IMG/VR virus record: IMGVR_UViG_3300035698_012357
Location: 1-23,923 of that record
Reading direction: 5' to 3' (one strand)
Source: a virus
DNA: 23,923 nucleotides
Shown: positions 8,771 through 21,877 of the stretch, one piece after another
Numbering within the stretch: the first letter of the stretch is position 1
How the letters are laid out: every line of letters starts with the position of its first letter
Translations under genes and position numbers: made by a program
The notes under the pieces: model-generated
What the model was told of the DNA's origin: nothing
Seen by the model: only the letters and a program-made list of their open reading frames with translations
Databases searched by the model: none

Positions 8771-9355
8771 TCAAGTCAAAATTTCAAAATTAAACTTTTT
8801 CTTATATAACATAATATTGGACATTTGGTTGTCTTCTGGGTTGTCCCACTTAAAAACAAGTTTGTCTTTGCCAAGTTTCCATTGGTCCCTTTCGCCCTTT
8901 TTCAGCCACAATTCGTCCCCAACCTCTATTGCTGCTACGGAGGTCGAGATAATCTTGACATGATAATAGGCGTATTTCTTTTCCTGCTTTTCCTCAAATG
9001 GCAACAATATCTTACTATCCTTCTTGACGTAATCCGGCACTAGAACACCAACCAAAACACCATTAACAGGAATCCCATTAACAAGCAAAATATGATCTTC
9101 ACTCCCACATATTCGCTCTTCATCAACATCGAGTTGTAGCCATGTCCAACGCTCAATAGTCGCTTTATCACCAACTTTTACAATCCCGCATCGTGGTCCA
9201 ACCTCCTCTACCATTCCGACGTAAGCATCCGGGGGGAACCTCCACCTTCGTGGATCCCTCTCAACAATCTGTAGGCCCTGGGGAGTCTTCTCCTCCACGG
9301 CAATATTTATGATGCAGTGCTTACCGGCTAAATTAAAATCACCCAATCCAGACAT
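8771..9355 (-). CDS. GroES-like co-chaperonin-fold protein, possibly tandem-domain
   Basis: A 194-residue protein. Residues about 10-95 follow the GroES/gp31 pattern: KHCIINIAVEEKTPQGLQIV (the N-terminal strand and mobile-loop region), YVGMVEEVGPRCGIVKVGDKA (the core strand pair) and EDHILLVNG (the C-terminal strand). Residues about 128-190 repeat a similar order (KIISTSVAAIEVGDELWLKKG, then SNIMLYKK), suggesting a second copy. T4 gp31, a GroES analogue, works with GroEL to fold its capsid protein; a similar role here is inference. The start overlaps the terminase stop (TAATG), with AGAGGAGG upstream, so it is translationally coupled to the terminase. An alternative is a small head protein with a similar barrel. 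Confidence 0.5.
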   Translation of the reverse strand: MSGLGDFNLAGKHCIINIAVEEKTPQGLQIVERDPRRWRFPPDAYVGMVEEVGPRCGIVKVGDKATIERWTWLQLDVDEERICGSEDHILLVNGIPVNGVLVGVLVPDYVKKDSKILLPFEEKQEKKYAYYHVKIISTSVAAIEVGDELWLKKGERDQWKLGKDKLVFKWDNPEDNQMSNIMLYKKKFNFEILT

Positions 9356-12300
9356 TAATATCCTCCTCTTGATCCAGGAAGCGGTATATCACTATAAAGA
9401 CGATTACCAGATTCCTTCTTTCCAAAAATCTTTTCATAACCAGATTCGTAAGGTGTTACCATTTTCTTGGGGATGTCGCCAAGCCCCACAACGCCGTACC
9501 GAAGCGTGTCGCAATTCGATACAAGTATTCCATTAGCAAAATATTCGTGATTTTTTTCTACGGTGAGATTATATACTGGTAGGCGTTTATTTGTTTTTTC
9601 TACATTTAAAACGTAAACGTTGCCCACAAACCCTTGAGCAAGTTTTTTGATTATCATAACGATTCGATTGGAATGCTTTTGAACAAACAATACAATGAGC
9701 CTGGATGTCGTCCTTTCCGATTTTTCTTCTCCACTTCGCCTTACAAGCATTGGAACAAAATTTGACATTCGTGATTTTGTGTGTTCCAAAACCCATATTG
9801 CACATTTGGCAAACAACATGCCTGTGGCCACGAGCAATTCTTTTTTTCCATGCGAGTTTCCCGCTTCTGACATGAACTTTTTTGTTTCGTGGGTCTTTGT
9901 GCCATGCAGATGCGAGTGGCCGAATTCTCTTGAGGTTTCTATATTGTAATTGACTGCATTTCCCAATGGAATGCTGGGATAAATGTTCACTGGCAGGCTT
10001 GCATTCGAGGTTGGAAATATTATTGTTGAGTGGGTTCCCGTCAATGTGGTGAATATGGGAATTCTTCGGTATAATTCCATTATGGGCCTTCCATATCTCC
10101 TGATGAAGTCGCCCAACACCCATCTTACGAAACAACCCACTTGGCGAATAATACAACCGACATTCCCGCCGAATGCTTTCTGGATACCGACGAAACCGAA
10201 TCCCGTTGTATGTGATTGTTTGTTGTCCCATATACTTAGTATATCACCATATCGCAGAGAGTCAATAGGTAAGAAATCTTTTTTATTAGCAACAAAAACA
10301 GGGTGATCGCCCGTCCCAGTAAGAATCGCACCATTCGAAAGTACAACTTTTCGAATTTCAGCTGATGCGTTTGTCATGGCCGATGCAATAACTCGTCTGG
10401 AGCCTTCCCTCGTTATAACCAAATCTCCAACCTGGACGCTATTGAGAGGGACTCCTCCTGTTGGCGTTTCCACAATCGTTTCCCCAGTAAGACAGGCGTG
10501 ATCCTCACATGCTTTGTCCGTATCTTCAGGCCGTATATCATCATGAATGATCGATGGGATCGTTCGAATGAGGTTATGGCAAGTGGGCGATATTTGAAGC
10601 CATGGGTAGCCGTCAGGAGCCTTGGTCATGTACTCTCGAACCTTCATCCACCCAGGAACACGGGAATTGTTGGCCTTGATCATGGGGAGATTATCACCAA
10701 ACACAGACTCCATGAGTTGTTGAATTGTCTCGCCGCCACCCTCCATATCGGCTGTTTTGCCCCAGATCTCAGGAGGAGCAACAAAATAGTCCATCGATTT
10801 AAGTTCGTCGTCAGGAGTCAGGTCGAGTATCTCCTTGGCAAGACGTTTTGGCCCAAAGCGGGTCACATATAGCTCCCTGTAAACGAAAACACGGCCCATA
10901 GGGGTAATTTCGTACCATAGAACACAGGCGGGTTCCGCAAAGCCCCAGTCCAGCGACATGATCTTGTGGGTTGTCCTTTCGGGGATGTGGGGGTTGGCCA
11001 AAACAGACTGACCAAGCGTGGAATCCCATTCGGTGAAAAAGGAACCCTCGAATACGTCCCACCGCCCCTCAGCCAGGGCGAGATATTTTTTCTCAGGAAG
11101 CGACTTCAAACGCTGGATGTAGGTGGGGTCAGCCTCAGCCAGTGCCGGGTTGTCCTTGATCTTGGCCGGGATGAAGGTCATCGTCCTGCTTGGGACCACC
11201 GGGTCGTTCCATTTCTTGTGAACGGTCCACGGTTCAATAAAACGTTTGAATAGGTACCCATGACCGACGTTCCCCGGGTTGGATGCCAGTCTGATGAGCG
11301 GCTTCACCGCCGGATCGGATGAGCGGCACCGGGAGGCCATGTAGGTCAACTGAAATTCGTTGAACATGCTGGCTTCATCGAACCCAATATCATGATATTG
11401 GGAACTGTGGTAGCGGTAAACGTCCATATCGCGTTCGCAATTCCCAGCAAGATAGGCTCTACCATTTCTCCTGACAACAATCTTCCCGTATGGCCTTGCC
11501 TCAACACAGTAAACCATGCCCGAATACTTTGTTTTCTTCACATCAGTTTTTCTAAACTCTGTATATTCACCAACACCAATAGAAACACAATATTGTTTTC
11601 GACAGTGATATTCCTTCCCTCGAAACATTCGGCAGCCATCACTTTTTTCTCCAATTGTCGCCCGAATACCTATTCTCAAACAAAGTTCCTGTATGTCGTC
11701 TGCCAATAATTTTGATGTCGTTGTATAAGAGTAGCGAAAGGTATCCTTCTTTCTCTTGTCATGATGACCATCACCGAGTAAAAGACCATCCAGCATATTT
11801 TTCAAACATTCATCTGACCAATCAAAACATTCCCGTGGTATTCTTTTCTCGTAAGCCAGTCCACCACAGTTATCTAAAATCCACGAATGAAGTTCCTTGC
11901 TCGATATTGTAACTCTTGGGACACCAATATTATCTTTGGGATATGAAACAAAGAAACCAAAATTACATTTTCTAACATCTTCTTTTAATTTGTCGAGATT
12001 ATTCTTCTGATATATAAAAACATCATACTTGTACCTGGATGTGCAGCCCTCTGAAATAAACCAGCCAAGAAATTTAGAAAAATCTTCGACCTTGCATTTT
12101 GTTATATTTTTGTGACCACCCTTGACGCTATTAAAATAAACGTATTCCGATTTGTTTAAGCAAGGACCCCTGGAAAAGGATCTCTGGATTCTACGTCTCC
12201 CATTGAAATCCTTTGCCATCTCAAACAATCCATCAGTCCATATTCTTTTTTTCTTGCCACCAGAATTTAATTTCTGAACAAAAAATCTATGTTCGGGAGT

Positions 12301-12819
12301 ACAACAAATATCAACACCATTTCTTTGCTGTATTGACATCATTTCTCCACTATATTGATATTTGATATATTTTTGTGGACGAACAAACACAATTTCGTTT
12401 TTGTCATTAACCGAAGCCACACACTCCGAACGACTTAGATCAGCGAATAATCTCCATCCAGAAGTTGTCAAAATTTCCGTTTTATCATCAAAACAATGTC
12501 CAAATTCCTGTACAGATCCGTTCTCAAACTCCCATAAATGCTTTGCCGACTTGTAGGTAGCCCCAAAATGGGGGTAAATCTTGTGGGATTCGCGGATAAT
12601 AGACCGTTCAAGCTCAGGATAGGTCCGTCTTAACAAAATTCCAGCCGTATTAGGGAATTCGAGCCGTCTTTTAAGCCCAAACAGCAGCATCGCAATGCTC
12701 TTCCCACCACCCGCAGCCCCACCATAGAGAACCTCATCGCAATCAGACCGAAGGAAGGCATCCTGCTTCGGGAAGATATTGATCTTGGCCTGTTTTCCTG
12801 ATATGTCAACAATGTCCAT
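9355..12819 (-). CDS. terL: Terminase large subunit precursor with two inteins
   Basis: A 1154-residue precursor. The ATPase/nuclease motor cuts and packages phage DNA. The extein carries Walker A GGAAGGGKS (residues 33-41), Walker B HDIGFDEAS (476-484) and a coupling motif RLASNPGN (510-517). The nuclease strand is MSLDWGF (D624), with the C-terminal acidic motif DHA/CDTLRYG split by the second intein. Exteins are residues 1-108, 461-775 and 1103-1154, so the spliced protein would be 475 aa, normal for TerL. Both inteins begin with Cys, end with Asn and are followed by Cys. The gene starts 3 nt after the candidate small subunit, with a weak GAGAAG site. Confidence 0.92.
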   Translation of the reverse strand: MDIVDISGKQAKINIFPKQDAFLRSDCDEVLYGGAAGGGKSIAMLLFGLKRRLEFPNTAGILLRRTYPELERSIIRESHKIYPHFGATYKSAKHLWEFENGSVQEFGHCFDDKTEILTTSGWRLFADLSRSECVASVNDKNEIVFVRPQKYIKYQYSGEMMSIQQRNGVDICCTPEHRFFVQKLNSGGKKKRIWTDGLFEMAKDFNGRRRIQRSFSRGPCLNKSEYVYFNSVKGGHKNITKCKVEDFSKFLGWFISEGCTSRYKYDVFIYQKNNLDKLKEDVRKCNFGFFVSYPKDNIGVPRVTISSKELHSWILDNCGGLAYEKRIPRECFDWSDECLKNMLDGLLLGDGHHDKRKKDTFRYSYTTTSKLLADDIQELCLRIGIRATIGEKSDGCRMFRGKEYHCRKQYCVSIGVGEYTEFRKTDVKKTKYSGMVYCVEARPYGKIVVRRNGRAYLAGNCERDMDVYRYHSSQYHDIGFDEASMFNEFQLTYMASRCRSSDPAVKPLIRLASNPGNVGHGYLFKRFIEPWTVHKKWNDPVVPSRTMTFIPAKIKDNPALAEADPTYIQRLKSLPEKKYLALAEGRWDVFEGSFFTEWDSTLGQSVLANPHIPERTTHKIMSLDWGFAEPACVLWYEITPMGRVFVYRELYVTRFGPKRLAKEILDLTPDDELKSMDYFVAPPEIWGKTADMEGGGETIQQLMESVFGDNLPMIKANNSRVPGWMKVREYMTKAPDGYPWLQISPTCHNLIRTIPSIIHDDIRPEDTDKACEDHACLTGETIVETPTGGVPLNSVQVGDLVITREGSRRVIASAMTNASAEIRKVVLSNGAILTGTGDHPVFVANKKDFLPIDSLRYGDILSIWDNKQSHTTGFGFVGIQKAFGGNVGCIIRQVGCFVRWVLGDFIRRYGRPIMELYRRIPIFTTLTGTHSTIIFPTSNASLPVNIYPSIPLGNAVNYNIETSREFGHSHLHGTKTHETKKFMSEAGNSHGKKELLVATGMLFAKCAIWVLEHTKSRMSNFVPMLVRRSGEEKSERTTSRLIVLFVQKHSNRIVMIIKKLAQGFVGNVYVLNVEKTNKRLPVYNLTVEKNHEYFANGILVSNCDTLRYGVVGLGDIPKKMVTPYESGYEKIFGKKESGNRLYSDIPLPGSRGGY
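9514..10494 (-). mobile_element. TerL intein 2, with an out-of-frame HNH gene inside
   Basis: A 327-residue intein (precursor residues 776-1102) inserted between DHA and CDTLRYG, in the last nuclease motif of TerL. Block A is CLTGETIVETPTGG and block B is LTGTGDHPVFV (intein residues about 58-68). Blocks F/G are PVYNLTVEKNHEYFANGILV followed by SN, then Cys+1. The penultimate residue is Ser instead of the usual His. Hint-domain sequence is recognisable at residues 1 to about 87 and about 290-327. The roughly 200 residues between them have no recognisable domain in this frame, because that DNA encodes the HNH gene at 9587-10231 in another frame. Confidence 0.88.
9587..10231 (-). CDS. HNH homing endonuclease with C-terminal zinc fingers, nested out of frame in intein 2
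   Basis: A 214-residue endonuclease predicted to cut intein-less terL alleles. Residues about 42-83 are a canonical HNH core: LHQEIWKAHNG, then HIHHIDGNPLNNNISNLE, with a further His at 83. The C-terminal third holds two treble-clef-like fingers, C141/C144/C159/C163 and C180/C183/C198/C202, typical DNA-binding add-ons of phage HNH enzymes. It has its own ATG (10229-10231) and TAA (9587-9589). An in-frame TGA lies 12 nt upstream of the ATG, so it is not a fusion to the intein. It is read on the same strand as terL but with codons starting on the third base of terL codons. The ribosome site is weak (GGTGAT, distant). Confidence 0.85.
   Translation of the reverse strand: MGQQTITYNGIRFRRYPESIRRECRLYYSPSGLFRKMGVGRLHQEIWKAHNGIIPKNSHIHHIDGNPLNNNISNLECKPASEHLSQHSIGKCSQLQYRNLKRIRPLASAWHKDPRNKKVHVRSGKLAWKKRIARGHRHVVCQMCNMGFGTHKITNVKFCSNACKAKWRRKIGKDDIQAHCIVCSKAFQSNRYDNQKTCSRVCGQRLRFKCRKNK
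11440..12495 (-). mobile_element. TerL intein 1 with in-frame LAGLIDADG endonuclease
   Basis: A 352-residue intein (precursor residues 109-460) inserted after ENGSVQEFGH, between Walker A and Walker B. Block A is CFDDKTEILTTSGW and block B is GVDICCTPEHRFFV (intein residues 60-73). Two LAGLIDADG-type helices are present: KFLGWFISEG (141-150) and MLDGLLLGDGHHD (234-246), each keeping its acidic residue. The C-terminal region MVYCVEARPYGKIV, then GRAYLAGN/C, is atypical: the penultimate residue is Gly, not His. The open frame, intact acidic residues and conserved terminal Cys/Asn suggest it still splices and could still home. Confidence 0.9.
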
Positions 12820-14845: not shown

Positions 14846-15235
14846 TTAAATATTATTGAATTGAGAAGCCCACCAAACATTCTTTTTCTGATTATTTTTG
14901 GAAGGAGAGACACGAAGATTAAATCGAGCATGGCCACCATCGAGCATACTCGACGGAACATAAAATATTTTATCAAGTTCGGGATTGTATACGGCGAGGA
15001 AGTCAAACATGTCGGAGGTATATTTGTAGGAACTCATGTAGCACCGAACGGGGATAAACCCTCCCTCCATCTTCGCGTACTTCACCTGAACTCGTATGAA
15101 CTCGTTACGACGAAACCCGATTAGATCAAATCTCCAATCAGACCCATACGGAATCGCAACCTTGAATCCCCTTCCAAGTAAATCGGACATCACTTTTGAT
15201 TCGCCAATGTCGCCTTTGGTGCAAGCTATCCCCAT
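14846..15235 (-). CDS. PD-(D/E)XK endonuclease, I-Ssp6803I-like
   Basis: A 129-residue nuclease. KGDIGESKVMSDLLGRGF (E12), YGSDWRFDLIGF (D37) and FIRVQVKYAK (Q50, K52) make the catalytic E...D...QxK core. The C-terminus FLAVYNPELDKIFYVP, followed by SPSKNNQKKNVWWA, matches the group that includes the group-I-intron homing endonuclease I-Ssp6803I (PDDEXK_5-type). Length is typical for the family. No intron is visible around it, so it is a free-standing nuclease, possibly a solitary mobile gene or one that guards against related phages (inference). The ribosome site is weak (TTAGG, 9 nt upstream). Confidence 0.75.
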   Translation of the reverse strand: MGIACTKGDIGESKVMSDLLGRGFKVAIPYGSDWRFDLIGFRRNEFIRVQVKYAKMEGGFIPVRCYMSSYKYTSDMFDFLAVYNPELDKIFYVPSSMLDGGHARFNLRVSPSKNNQKKNVWWASQFNNI

Positions 15236-15265: not shown

Positions 15266-15382
15266 TCAAGGGGTTCGGTAAGTTGTGTATCCTAAGTTTC
15301 CGTATTCAACTTGAGAATCTTTTGCGGATTTTAATTGCGGGTGCAGTTGCCATGGATCCAAAAACAAACCTGGAGAATTCAT
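15266..15382 (-). CDS. Possible 38-residue peptide (tentative)
   Basis: The ATG at 15380-15382 overlaps the stop of the CMP-sugar synthetase-like gene (TGATGA), with only AGGG nearby as a ribosome site. The peptide (MNSPGLFLDPWQLHP..., ending in YRTP) resembles nothing I know. The same frame is open upstream into the synthetase gene, but it does not complete that enzyme's fold. It is listed so that the 146-nt gap is accounted for; it may be non-coding. Confidence 0.2.
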   Translation of the reverse strand: MNSPGLFLDPWQLHPQLKSAKDSQVEYGNLGYTTYRTP

Positions 15383-15972
15383 CAGCCCTGTTCTTTCACG
15401 AATTTCAGGCGAACAGTAAAGTCGGGTGTTGTTTGGTAAGTTTTGGGAAGCAACTGCCGAGGGGAATTATAGCTCTCACGAACTCCTCTTTTCGTAACGA
15501 ATGGCTTCATTCTTTTTTTGTCAATCTTCCACATCTTGTACGGTGACACAACAGATTCCTTTACGGACCTTACGCTATGGGCTTTGGGGTGATCTATCAG
15601 TATTCCGATACTTTTATCAATATCCCGATAATCGCAAAATGGGGCTGTGGGCCGTAGGTGGACAACAATATCAGGATCTCCTTTGAGGGTATCCAAGCAA
15701 TGGCGAACAACAGAGTAATCAGTCACCTTGTCACCTGACAAACGCTTGGGCCGTTTGAATGGCACCTCAGCCGACCAATCCTCAGCAGCCCGGGCAATAT
15801 TGTTGTCATCCGTCGAAACGATAATCCGGTCAATGTAGCTCGTCATGTTCGCCGCAATGATGGGGTATGCCACCAGTGGCTTGCCTCTCAGCAGCCTCAG
15901 ATTCTTGTGAGGGATTCCTTTGGAACCACCACGCGCAGGTATAATCGCCCAAACCTCAAGTCCTTCAATCAT
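15382..15972 (-). CDS. CMP-sugar synthetase (NeuA/PseF-like cytidylyltransferase), C-terminally short
   Basis: A 196-residue nucleotidyltransferase. WAIIPARGGSKGIPHKN (residues 8-24) is the CTP-binding signature of acylneuraminate cytidylyltransferases. IDRIIVSTDDNNIA, EVPFKRPKRLSGDK, VVHLRPTAPF and VSPYKMWKIDKK follow in family order. These enzymes charge nonulosonic acids (sialic, pseudaminic, legionaminic) with CMP. Family members are usually near 230 residues and continue past RQLLPKTY with an NG-containing strand and an acidic metal-binding end. Here the sequence diverges after RQLLPKTY and stops about 17 residues later. The other frames do not restore the tail, so activity is uncertain. 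The start overlaps the upstream stop by 8 nt. Confidence 0.75.
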   Translation of the reverse strand: MIEGLEVWAIIPARGGSKGIPHKNLRLLRGKPLVAYPIIAANMTSYIDRIIVSTDDNNIARAAEDWSAEVPFKRPKRLSGDKVTDYSVVRHCLDTLKGDPDIVVHLRPTAPFCDYRDIDKSIGILIDHPKAHSVRSVKESVVSPYKMWKIDKKRMKPFVTKRGVRESYNSPRQLLPKTYQTTPDFTVRLKFVKEQG

Positions 15973-17047
15973 AATTTTTTAAACACTCCCCTGCTAAGTC
16001 AAAAATATCCTGATTCTCCAAAAACGATTTGTTGTGATCGTACACAACGCCGATGCCCAGCTTCTCCACCGTCTTGTTGTTGAAGTAGATTTCTGGGTCA
16101 TCGAATTCGTTGAACGGTAACGCGATCAATGGCTTTTTGTAGGCGAGTGATTTCCCAATGGTCCCCCAGCCAGCCCTGCCAGCAATAAATTTAATCTTGG
16201 GGTTCCCCATCTGGGAAGGATTCAAATATTGGCACAGCGAGAATGCCCGGAACGTGTCGTTCGAATACAGCTTCAGCCCATGGCGGGTCGCAATGCCGTA
16301 AAAATCAACCAAAGTTTTGAATAGCGAAGGCAGGTTGGGTATCCCACTGATGTTCAGGTACACCCCGTCTTTGATGCTGCAATTCCCATTCTTGGAGTAG
16401 GGAAGTTCGTCCAGAACCAAATCCACCTTCTCTTCGTTGTGACGAATGATTCGATTCGAACAAAAGGAAAATGAGCCCGGGCTGGCTATGTAGTTCATTG
16501 TGTAGTTGTCTTCCATGGCCTCAAAACGTTCTGCCGCCGCCAGCAGCAAGAATTCGTAAACCTCAGGAATTCCTTCGGTTTGGGAATATTGATCGCAAAC
16601 GTCAGACAAGAATCCAAACGAATAGTTCTCACGAATCGACTTGTCGAATGGGTACATCACGCGGGGGGATCTGGCCACCTCACAGATAATCTGCTTGGGG
16701 TTGACCACAAAATAGTCACCCTTGGTATTGTAAATTTCAAAATGGGTGGTAAGGAGTTGCTCGATTCTTGTTTCGGTCTTGTCTATCTTTTCGAGCCATT
16801 CGCACAAATAAACACAAAAGCTGGTGGACCCCTTCCAGAAAATATCCCTAAGGGAATCACCCAGCTTGTCAAAATAGAAAATATCCGCGTCGGGGAACTG
16901 CTCGCTTATGATTCGCTTCTGAGTCTCACCGTAAACGTTCGGAACAATTATCCCCACATCAGGCTCCCAAGACTCCAAAGCCCATTTCAAGCAACTCAAA
17001 TAGGATCCGTGTCCCCAGGAGAAATTCAGAATAACGTATTTCTTCAT
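15965..17047 (-). CDS. GT-B fold glycosyltransferase
   Basis: A 360-residue protein. The N-terminus MKKYVILNFSWGHGSYLSCLKWALES is a Rossmann-type beta strand with a Gly-rich loop, as in GT1/GT28 enzymes. The C-terminal donor site is recognisable at residues about 287-312: FIAGRAGWGTIGKSLAY, then KKPLIALPFNEFDDPEIY, the pattern in which a Gly-rich loop and acidic residues hold the nucleotide sugar. It probably transfers a sugar to a surface or virion glycan; the donor may be the product of the adjacent CMP-sugar gene (inference). Its start overlaps the upstream micropeptide stop by 4 nt (ATGA), and it overlaps the synthetase by 8 nt. Confidence 0.75.
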   Translation of the reverse strand: MKKYVILNFSWGHGSYLSCLKWALESWEPDVGIIVPNVYGETQKRIISEQFPDADIFYFDKLGDSLRDIFWKGSTSFCVYLCEWLEKIDKTETRIEQLLTTHFEIYNTKGDYFVVNPKQIICEVARSPRVMYPFDKSIRENYSFGFLSDVCDQYSQTEGIPEVYEFLLLAAAERFEAMEDNYTMNYIASPGSFSFCSNRIIRHNEEKVDLVLDELPYSKNGNCSIKDGVYLNISGIPNLPSLFKTLVDFYGIATRHGLKLYSNDTFRAFSLCQYLNPSQMGNPKIKFIAGRAGWGTIGKSLAYKKPLIALPFNEFDDPEIYFNNKTVEKLGIGVVYDHNKSFLENQDIFDLAGECLKNYD

Positions 17048-21329: not shown

Positions 21330-21570
21330 ACACATAAGAGAAATCAGGGGAAGGCTGGGGAAAACCCAGTGGGAGTTGGGGGAGATGTTGGGGTATTCCC
21401 ACCCCCAAATCAGGATTAGTGAAGTTGAGAGGGGGGCCAAGCGTATGTCATCGGAGAAGAAAATGGTCCTGGCAGAGATGGAGAAGGCCCTCAATTCGCC
21501 GGAGGATCTAACTCATCAAGAAAAACGAGGATTCTTGGGCTGTCTTTATCCGGCGGGGGAAAGTGATTAA
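21319..21570 (+). CDS. XRE-family (Cro/CI-type) DNA-binding regulator
   Basis: An 83-residue protein. Residues about 5-50 form a Cro/CI-type helix-turn-helix: HIREIRGRLGKTQWELGEML, then GYSHPQIRISEVERGAKRMS. The second helix TQWELGEML and the recognition helix region HPQIRISEVE are clear. The 28-residue tail (LNSPEDLTHQEKRGF...) has no known domain. GGAAGGATAAAT precedes the ATG. Its 3' end overlaps the opposite-strand resolvase by 80 bp. It is the best candidate to bind the inverted repeat near the rightward promoter (inference). Confidence 0.8.
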   Translation: MDGKHIREIRGRLGKTQWELGEMLGYSHPQIRISEVERGAKRMSSEKKMVLAEMEKALNSPEDLTHQEKRGFLGCLYPAGESD

Positions 21571-21877
21571 TAATCTCTTTGATCCAGTGGCGGTTGTCGT
21601 TGGGGATCCGGCCCGTGTTTACGAGGGAATCCAGTATAAACTTGGACCCCGCCGACACCCCGTCAATGTCCCTCCTGGCGTTGGGTTCAACCCATTCGAT
21701 GGTAACCCGGAGGGGGTTCTTGATCTCGGGGATCTGGGCAGCTAGTATGTATTTCGACACGAGTTTATCAGTCGTTTTTTTAAGTTGGCCGTATGCAAAA
21801 CGATTTGCCTGGGCTGCCCCAATCATTTCATTTAAACATGGAAGTCGGCCGGGAATTTTGAAAAAATGTGACCCCAT
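21491..21877 (-). CDS. rusA: RusA-like Holliday junction resolvase
   Basis: A 128-residue protein on the minus strand inside a plus-strand run. FFKIPGRLPCLNEMI (start), IEWVEPNARRDIDGVSAGSK and FILDSLVNTGRIPNDNRHWI carry the RusA pattern: D70, D72, K79, D83 and D94 correspond to the Asp and Lys residues that bind Mg2+ and cut junctions. KEI...SPRILVFLDEL closes the fold. Size fits RusA (about 120). It resolves recombination or replication intermediates. No ribosome site is visible before the ATG, and a poor promoter-like pair (TTGATT-17-TATGTT) lies just upstream. Its 3' end overlaps the XRE gene tail to tail. Confidence 0.82.
   Translation of the reverse strand: MGSHFFKIPGRLPCLNEMIGAAQANRFAYGQLKKTTDKLVSKYILAAQIPEIKNPLRVTIEWVEPNARRDIDGVSAGSKFILDSLVNTGRIPNDNRHWIKEIINHFPPPDKDSPRILVFLDELDPPAN

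What the first reader, a model, noticed from the sequence alone, without database searches (positions are those of the whole stretch)
9587..10231. HNH homing endonuclease gene nested out of frame inside a TerL intein (dual-coding)
Intein 2 has recognisable Hint halves (residues 1 to about 87 and about 290-327). Where an in-frame endonuclease domain is expected, the DNA encodes a complete 214-codon HNH/zinc-finger endonuclease in a different frame on the same strand, with its own ATG, its own TAA and an upstream in-frame TGA. Yet the terL/intein frame has no stop through the same 645 bp. Under a uniform 64-codon model, 215 stop-free codons would occur with a chance of roughly 3 in 100,000, and the AT-leaning composition makes it less likely. 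Selection must therefore be holding both frames open: terL must stay translatable, and the nuclease must stay functional. The gene behaves like a free-standing homing endonuclease using an intein as a safe, out-of-frame harbour. I do not know of this exact arrangement being described; in known inteins the endonuclease domain is in frame with the Hint domain, or the intein is split around a separate gene.
Basis: partly seen in the sequence, partly recalled or inferred. Interest (0 to 1): 0.88.

Follow-up and report, generated by a model that had tools for sequence, protein, structure and literature searches.

The report
Homing endonuclease hidden inside TerL intein
In this virus the DNA-packaging gene carries a self-splicing protein insert (an intein), and the same DNA read in another frame encodes the DNA-cutting enzyme that probably spreads it; the arrangement is neither chance nor error but recurs in dozens of viruses of bacteria and archaea, one of which carries the marks of a recent jump.

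Summary
A 214-codon HNH/zinc-finger gene (9587-10231, minus strand) lies in the +1 frame inside intein 2 (9514-10494) of an intact terL ORF.

It is not unique. 59 of 92 fetched loci have the same layout: Hint N-block, HNH in the same relative frame, Hint C-block. Four more are enclosed but lack a detected block. Intein-frame stops inside the HNH number 0 in those 59 against 131.6 expected. In 29 non-nested relatives there are 229 against 222.8.

In a nested clade the HNH frame has dN/dS 0.07-0.25, while the intein frame is only kept stop-free. AlphaFold agrees: the HNH is confident throughout (pLDDT 94), the Hint halves fold, and the middle of the intein frame is disordered.

Acinetobacter phage Highwayman differs from intein-free phage Acba_21 by an exact 981-bp insert. 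All 15 terL mismatches lie within about 165 bp of it: a co-conversion tract from recent homing. The insert's only recognised nuclease is the nested HNH.

Best reading: a composite mobile element, an intein with an overprinted, separately translated HNH. Closest published case: the out-of-frame HNH of the ShiLan domain (PMC11855218), which is not an intein. An unread 2025 preprint may already report this layout.

The parts
9355..12819 (-). terL ORF with two inteins; predicted spliced TerL 475 aa
   Evidence: PHROG terminase large subunit; 57% identical intein-free TerL in L097
9514..10494 (-). Intein 2 (327 aa, Hint domain, Cys1, TxxH, C-terminal Asn, +1 Cys) inserted in the conserved TerL motif DH(x)C-D-x-x-RY
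   Evidence: Pfam Intein_splicing; NCBIfam intein_Cterm; junctions by L097
9587..10231 (-). Nested HNH/double zinc-finger endonuclease gene, 214 aa; intein frame = HNH frame +1
   Evidence: AF2 pLDDT 94.1
10228..10494 (-). Hint N-terminal half of intein 2 (intein residues ~1-89), blocks A and B
   Evidence: AF2 pLDDT 94-98; Hint profile hit
9514..9618 (-). Hint C-terminal half of intein 2 (residues ~293-327); its first ~10 codons overlap the last HNH codons in the other frame
   Evidence: AF2 pLDDT 93-98; conserved in both frames across loci
9619..10227 (-). Overlap in which the intein frame is only a stop-free, mostly disordered linker while the HNH frame is the conserved one
   Evidence: AF2 pLDDT ~35-60 in most blocks; hardly any amino-acid conservation beyond null
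10243..10248 (-). GGTGAT, a partial Shine-Dalgarno-like stretch 11 nt before the HNH ATG, inside the codons of the Hint 'YGD' motif; spacing is poor, so weak evidence here
   Evidence: Sequence; survey of start regions
11440..12495 (-). Intein 1 (352 aa) with a conventional in-frame LAGLIDADG endonuclease, for contrast
   Evidence: LAGLIDADG_3 E=8e-11 and intein_Nterm

Best explanation
Intein 2 of this terL is a composite homing element. Its Hint halves are translated as part of TerL and should splice out. Its homing endonuclease is a separate HNH/zinc-finger protein encoded by the same DNA in the +1 frame and translated from its own start codon inside terL mRNA. Between the Hint halves the intein frame is only a stop-free linker: nonsense mutations are removed because they would truncate TerL, while amino-acid selection acts on the HNH frame. 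The HNH cuts intein-free terL alleles at the conserved nuclease motif (DH-x-C-D-x-x-RY) and repair copies intein and HNH in together. Shown: gene anatomy, recurrence, selection in the HNH frame (in a related clade), stop avoidance, and the homing footprint in Highwayman. Inferred: splicing, separate translation, DNA cleavage and target, all of them for the window's own copy.
For: Recurrence: 59 loci with both Hint blocks around a +1-frame HNH plus 4 enclosed loci; named examples are Highwayman (L003), Tetrasphaera TJE1 (L004), Rhodobacteraceae phage LS06-2018-MD07 (L005) and a Halobacterium plasmid prophage (L094). Stops in the intein frame: nested 0 vs 131.6 expected, non-nested 229 vs 222.8. 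Selection in the L071 clade: HNH-frame dN/dS 0.07-0.25, intein frame 1.2-2.1. Folds: HNH pLDDT 94.1; intein frame confident only at ~1-90 and 292-327. Homing: Highwayman vs Acba_21, exact 981-bp insert, 15 mismatches in 181 bp at the insertion and 0 in the other 1121 bp of terL (Fisher p=8e-14), 0 in 1000 bp downstream; the 8 next to the junction differ from all five empty alleles; +1 residue Leu to Cys. Gain or loss inside an intein: L033 and vir335 (L095) are 99.4-99.6% identical outside 818 bp (with HNH) vs 179 bp (mini-intein). Own starts: 24 of 63 nested copies have a Shine-Dalgarno match of 5 or more bases before the HNH start, up to TAAGGAGGTG.
Against: No expression, splicing or cleavage data. 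The window copy has only a weak, poorly spaced ribosome-binding site, and 39 of 63 nested copies lack a clear one; no shuffled control was run for that count. The homing footprint and dN/dS come from relatives (about 41% identical, and a distant clade), not from the window. The penultimate residue of intein 2 is Ser, not the usual His.
Confidence: 0.85

Rival explanations
1. The HNH is made as a fusion to the N-terminal Hint half by programmed frameshifting rather than from its own start.
For: The frames are one step apart and the HNH starts just after the Hint N-block.
Against: In the window only four codons separate the upstream in-frame TGA from the ATG, so a shift would have to fall in about 15 nt. 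Many relatives have as little room, and several have strong Shine-Dalgarno sequences instead.
Confidence: 0.06
2. Sequencing or assembly indels put a normal in-frame endonuclease domain out of frame.
For: Single metagenomic contig with no reads available.
Against: The same layout in the same frame is found in many independent records, including isolate genomes. Two compensating indels would be needed every time.
Confidence: 0.01
3. The insert is a group I intron carrying an HNH ORF; the Hint similarity is secondary.
For: HNH genes are common in phage introns; [quoted passage not shown] the intron origin from general knowledge).
Against: No Rfam match in the window. Hint motifs, Hint fold and profile matches to solved inteins are clear. 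The terL frame is open throughout. A mini-intein without the HNH exists in a near-identical virus.
Confidence: 0.01
4. The HNH gene in the window is a decaying passenger that no longer works; the open frames are leftovers.
For: Decayed copies exist: Brochothrix BL3 keeps only the last ~50 residues in a split intein.
Against: In the window the catalytic and zinc-binding positions invariant in the family are intact and the model is confident throughout. dN/dS in a nested clade is low.
Confidence: 0.07

Closest known systems
ShiLan domain and Pacc40 insertion, hidden out-of-frame HNH in phage DNA methylases (Arsenault, Gosselin, Gogarten 2025, PMC11855218)
   Same: Phage gene with an in-frame, stop-free insertion whose other frame encodes an HNH/zinc-finger endonuclease; sporadic distribution suggesting homing.
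   Different: The ShiLan insertion has no intein splicing motifs and is thought to remain in the protein. Here the HNH sits inside a recognisable Hint intein, in terL, across viruses of bacteria and archaea, and in one relative with an exact empty site and co-conversion tract.
Actinobacteriophage inteins with 'non-canonical architecture' (Gosselin et al. 2025, bioRxiv 10.1101/2025.01.02.630785)
   Same: Phage inteins; PMC11855218 cites it, with another work, for overlapping reading frames being frequent in actinobacteriophages. It may include this arrangement.
   Different: Not held in the library, so its content could not be compared.
Fractured genes: split inteins flanking a free-standing endonuclease gene (Dassa et al. 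2009, from memory)
   Same: Hint N, endonuclease gene, Hint C in that order. 15 of the fetched relatives have this form with the same HNH family.
   Different: In the window the host frame is uninterrupted, so the intein can splice in cis. From memory, the 2009 endonucleases were of another family.
Conventional full-length intein with in-frame endonuclease (e.g. intein 1 of this same gene, LAGLIDADG)
   Same: Hint splicing domain with an endonuclease in the middle, in a conserved host motif.
   Different: In intein 2 the endonuclease is in another frame and is a separate protein.

Membership tests
Class 1 intein | N-terminal nucleophile Cys1 and block B TxxH | tested here: met
   C1, T61, H64 invariant in 43 aligned inteins
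Class 1 intein | C-terminal Asn followed by Cys/Ser/Thr | tested here: met
   ...GILVSN|C; N327 invariant
Class 1 intein | Penultimate His (usual, not strictly required; from memory) | tested here: not met
   Ser in the window, His in many relatives
Class 1 intein | Hint fold | tested here: met
   Pfam Intein_splicing; profile hits to solved gp41-1 inteins E=5e-19; AF2 halves pLDDT 93-98
Class 1 intein | Protein splicing activity | not testable with these tools
   Needs expression
HNH homing endonuclease | HNH motif and zinc-finger cysteines | tested here: met
   HNH_3 E=6e-15; H61 H62 N70 H83 and eight Cys invariant or nearly so
HNH homing endonuclease | Presence/absence polymorphism at an exact site with co-conversion | tested here: met
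   Met in the relative Highwayman; for the window itself the closest TerL (57%) is only a distant empty site
HNH homing endonuclease | Sequence-specific cleavage of the empty site | not testable with these tools
   Needs biochemistry
ShiLan-type hidden HNH insertion | Out-of-frame HNH in an in-frame, stop-free insertion | tested here: met
ShiLan-type hidden HNH insertion | No self-splicing domain in the host frame | tested here: not met
   Clear Hint domain, so not a ShiLan domain
Fractured gene with split intein | Host reading frame interrupted between the Hint halves | tested here: not met
   terL frame open across 9355-12819; met in 15 relatives

The most novel reading that the evidence does not exclude
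A widespread, so far undescribed class of 'overprinted' inteins: in terminases of viruses of bacteria and archaea the homing endonuclease is a separately translated HNH gene fixed in the +1 frame of the intein, the stop-poor alternative frame. It forms an evolutionary series with mini-inteins, fractured split inteins and HNH genes lying near terL without Hint blocks, and moves by homing as one unit.
Probability: 0.5. Interest if true: 0.75.

Novelty: new variant of a known kind. Interest (0 to 1): 0.62.

Why it matters
It shows a third way for an intein to carry its endonuclease, besides in-frame fusion and split genes. The host frame pays only stop avoidance. It offers many natural replicates of overlapping genes with a clear asymmetry of selection, a matched pair with and without the HNH (L033/L095), and an exact empty site with a fresh homing scar (Highwayman/Acba_21). 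The order of events between mini-intein, nested, fractured and Hint-less forms therefore becomes testable. Gene finders usually report one frame only, so such nucleases are missed.

Tried and rejected
Intron: no Rfam family at gathering threshold in the window. Sequencing error: rejected by recurrence. Frameshift fusion: little room. Idea that the conserved Hint 'GD' codons GGTGAT always supply the HNH ribosome-binding site: seen in the window and some relatives, but the spacing is poor and most copies do not use it; dropped as a general rule. Mantel comparison of HNH, Hint and TerL distances: all weakly correlated (0.27-0.38), so it does not tell joint from separate inheritance. HNH tree: nested copies are clustered but not one clade; 11 changes by parsimony, at least 2 forced by well-supported branches; direction not inferred. 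Foldseek of the HNH model against PDB gave nothing significant; I-HmuI only at E=0.75. tblastn with a distant nested HNH found no phage records. The profile scan of genome contigs was not possible; the single-protein scan found one MAG, also enclosed. The library does not hold the key preprint or Gorbalenya 1998.

Full report
OBSERVATION. The window is a 23.9-kb linear virus record. On the minus strand an uninterrupted terL ORF (9355-12819, 1154 codons) contains two inteins: intein 1 at 11440-12495, with a normal in-frame LAGLIDADG endonuclease, and intein 2 at 9514-10494, 327 aa. Removing both gives a 475-aa TerL that aligns end to end, at 57% identity, with an intein-free TerL from another viral contig (L097), so both boundaries are right. 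Inside intein 2, in the +1 frame relation, lies a 214-codon ORF with ATG, TAA and an upstream in-frame TGA. It is an HNH_3 endonuclease (E=6e-15) with two zinc-finger-like sets of cysteines.

CHANCE. Shuffling the window's own HNH codons among synonymous sites leaves the intein frame open in about 1 of 300 shuffles. In non-nested relatives it has about 8 stops per gene against about 21 in the +2 frame (229 and 602 stops in 29 genes). This may also explain why every nested copy uses the +1 frame. Across 59 nested copies there are 0 stops where 131.6 are expected; in 29 non-nested copies 229 against 222.8. Being open was part of how the nested set was chosen, so the informative part is the contrast with relatives that lack an enclosing frame and show no avoidance.

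RECURRENCE. A profile scan of viral contigs and tblastn against named phages gave 92 HNH loci. 59 have Hint N-block, HNH and Hint C-block in one terL-like ORF, 4 more are enclosed but lack a detected block, and 29 are not enclosed. Of the 29, 15 are 'fractured': Hint blocks on both sides but the frame broken (one of them, L039, is cut by the contig start and shows only the C-block). The other 14 have no detected Hint blocks, though divergent Hint blocks may have been missed. Named nested cases are Highwayman, TJE1, LS06-2018-MD07 and a Halobacterium plasmid prophage, and a MAG contig (L134). A follow-up scan with one nested HNH gave 30 contigs; the 19 sequences of that clade that were checked are all enclosed in the same frame. 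Insertion is at the TerL motif DH(x)C-D-x-x-RY or a close variant in most loci.

SELECTION. In the clade of L071, closely related nested pairs have dN/dS 0.07-0.25 in the HNH frame and 1.2-2.1 in the intein frame. The second figure is what HNH constraint alone produces, not evidence of positive selection. Across distant pairs, intein-frame amino acids in the middle of the overlap are hardly more alike than in synonymous shuffles (25% vs 23% identity), but at the C-terminal end, where the HNH overlaps the Hint block, they are (32% vs 17%, pairs at 0.45-0.55 HNH distance); non-nested copies show no such excess. AlphaFold2 gives the same picture: HNH mean pLDDT 94.1; intein frame above 93 at residues 1-90 and 292-327 and mostly 35-60 between, apart from one helix.

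MOBILITY. Acinetobacter phage Highwayman terL equals that of Acba_21 plus an exact 981-bp insert. Of the 1302 shared bases, 15 differ and all lie in a 181-bp stretch around the insertion point; the first 1052 bases and 1000 bases downstream are identical (Fisher p=8e-14). The eight next to the junction are found in none of five empty alleles; of the other seven, five are shared with some other empty allele, so part of the tract could be ordinary variation. The residue after the intein is Leu when empty and Cys when occupied. This is the footprint of homing with co-conversion. No other nuclease is recognised in the insert, so the nested HNH is the likely driver. Separately, L033 and the archaeal virus vir335 (L095) are 99.4-99.6% identical apart from 818 bp with the HNH versus 179 bp without, inside the intein, so the HNH segment can be gained or lost while the intein stays.

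TRANSLATION. 24 of 63 nested copies have a Shine-Dalgarno match of at least 5 bases before a plausible start, including AAGGAGGT and TAAGGAGGTG; 17 of 29 non-nested do. The start was chosen partly by this match, so the count is generous. The window's own site is weak. Separate initiation is therefore an inference for the window.

NOVELTY. Full-text searches found one close precedent, the ShiLan domain (PMC11855218), which lacks any intein motif. Its authors cite their own intein preprint for overlapping frames being frequent in actinobacteriophages; that preprint is not held and may describe this layout. Hence 'new variant of a known kind' with moderate confidence.

Noticed in passing
L062:1-2832: One ORF seems to hold two intein units, each with a nested HNH-like stretch in the same +1 frame.
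   Followed up: partly
L006, L007, L055, L056, L076, L078, L090 and others: Same HNH family between the two halves of a split terL intein; terL in Lactobacillus CL2 and Brochothrix BL3 is thus probably trans-spliced, and BL3 keeps only the end of the HNH.
   Followed up: partly
L033 and L095 (NC_134205.1): Near-identical viruses, one assigned to Methanomassiliicoccales, differ in having a nested HNH versus a mini-intein.
   Followed up: yes
L002 (Acinetobacter phage BP10): A related HNH without Hint blocks lies upstream of terS and groups within the nested copies in the HNH tree, possibly an escape from an intein.
   Followed up: no
window 11440-12495 (-): The same terL carries a second intein with a conventional in-frame LAGLIDADG endonuclease, so one gene shows both architectures.
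   Followed up: partly
window 15382-17047 (-): By eye, ORFs resembling an acylneuraminate cytidylyltransferase and a further sugar-related protein; not searched.
   Followed up: no
window 14846-15235 (-) and 21491-21877 (-): By eye, a PD-(D/E)XK-type nuclease-like ORF and a RusA-like ORF; not searched.
   Followed up: no
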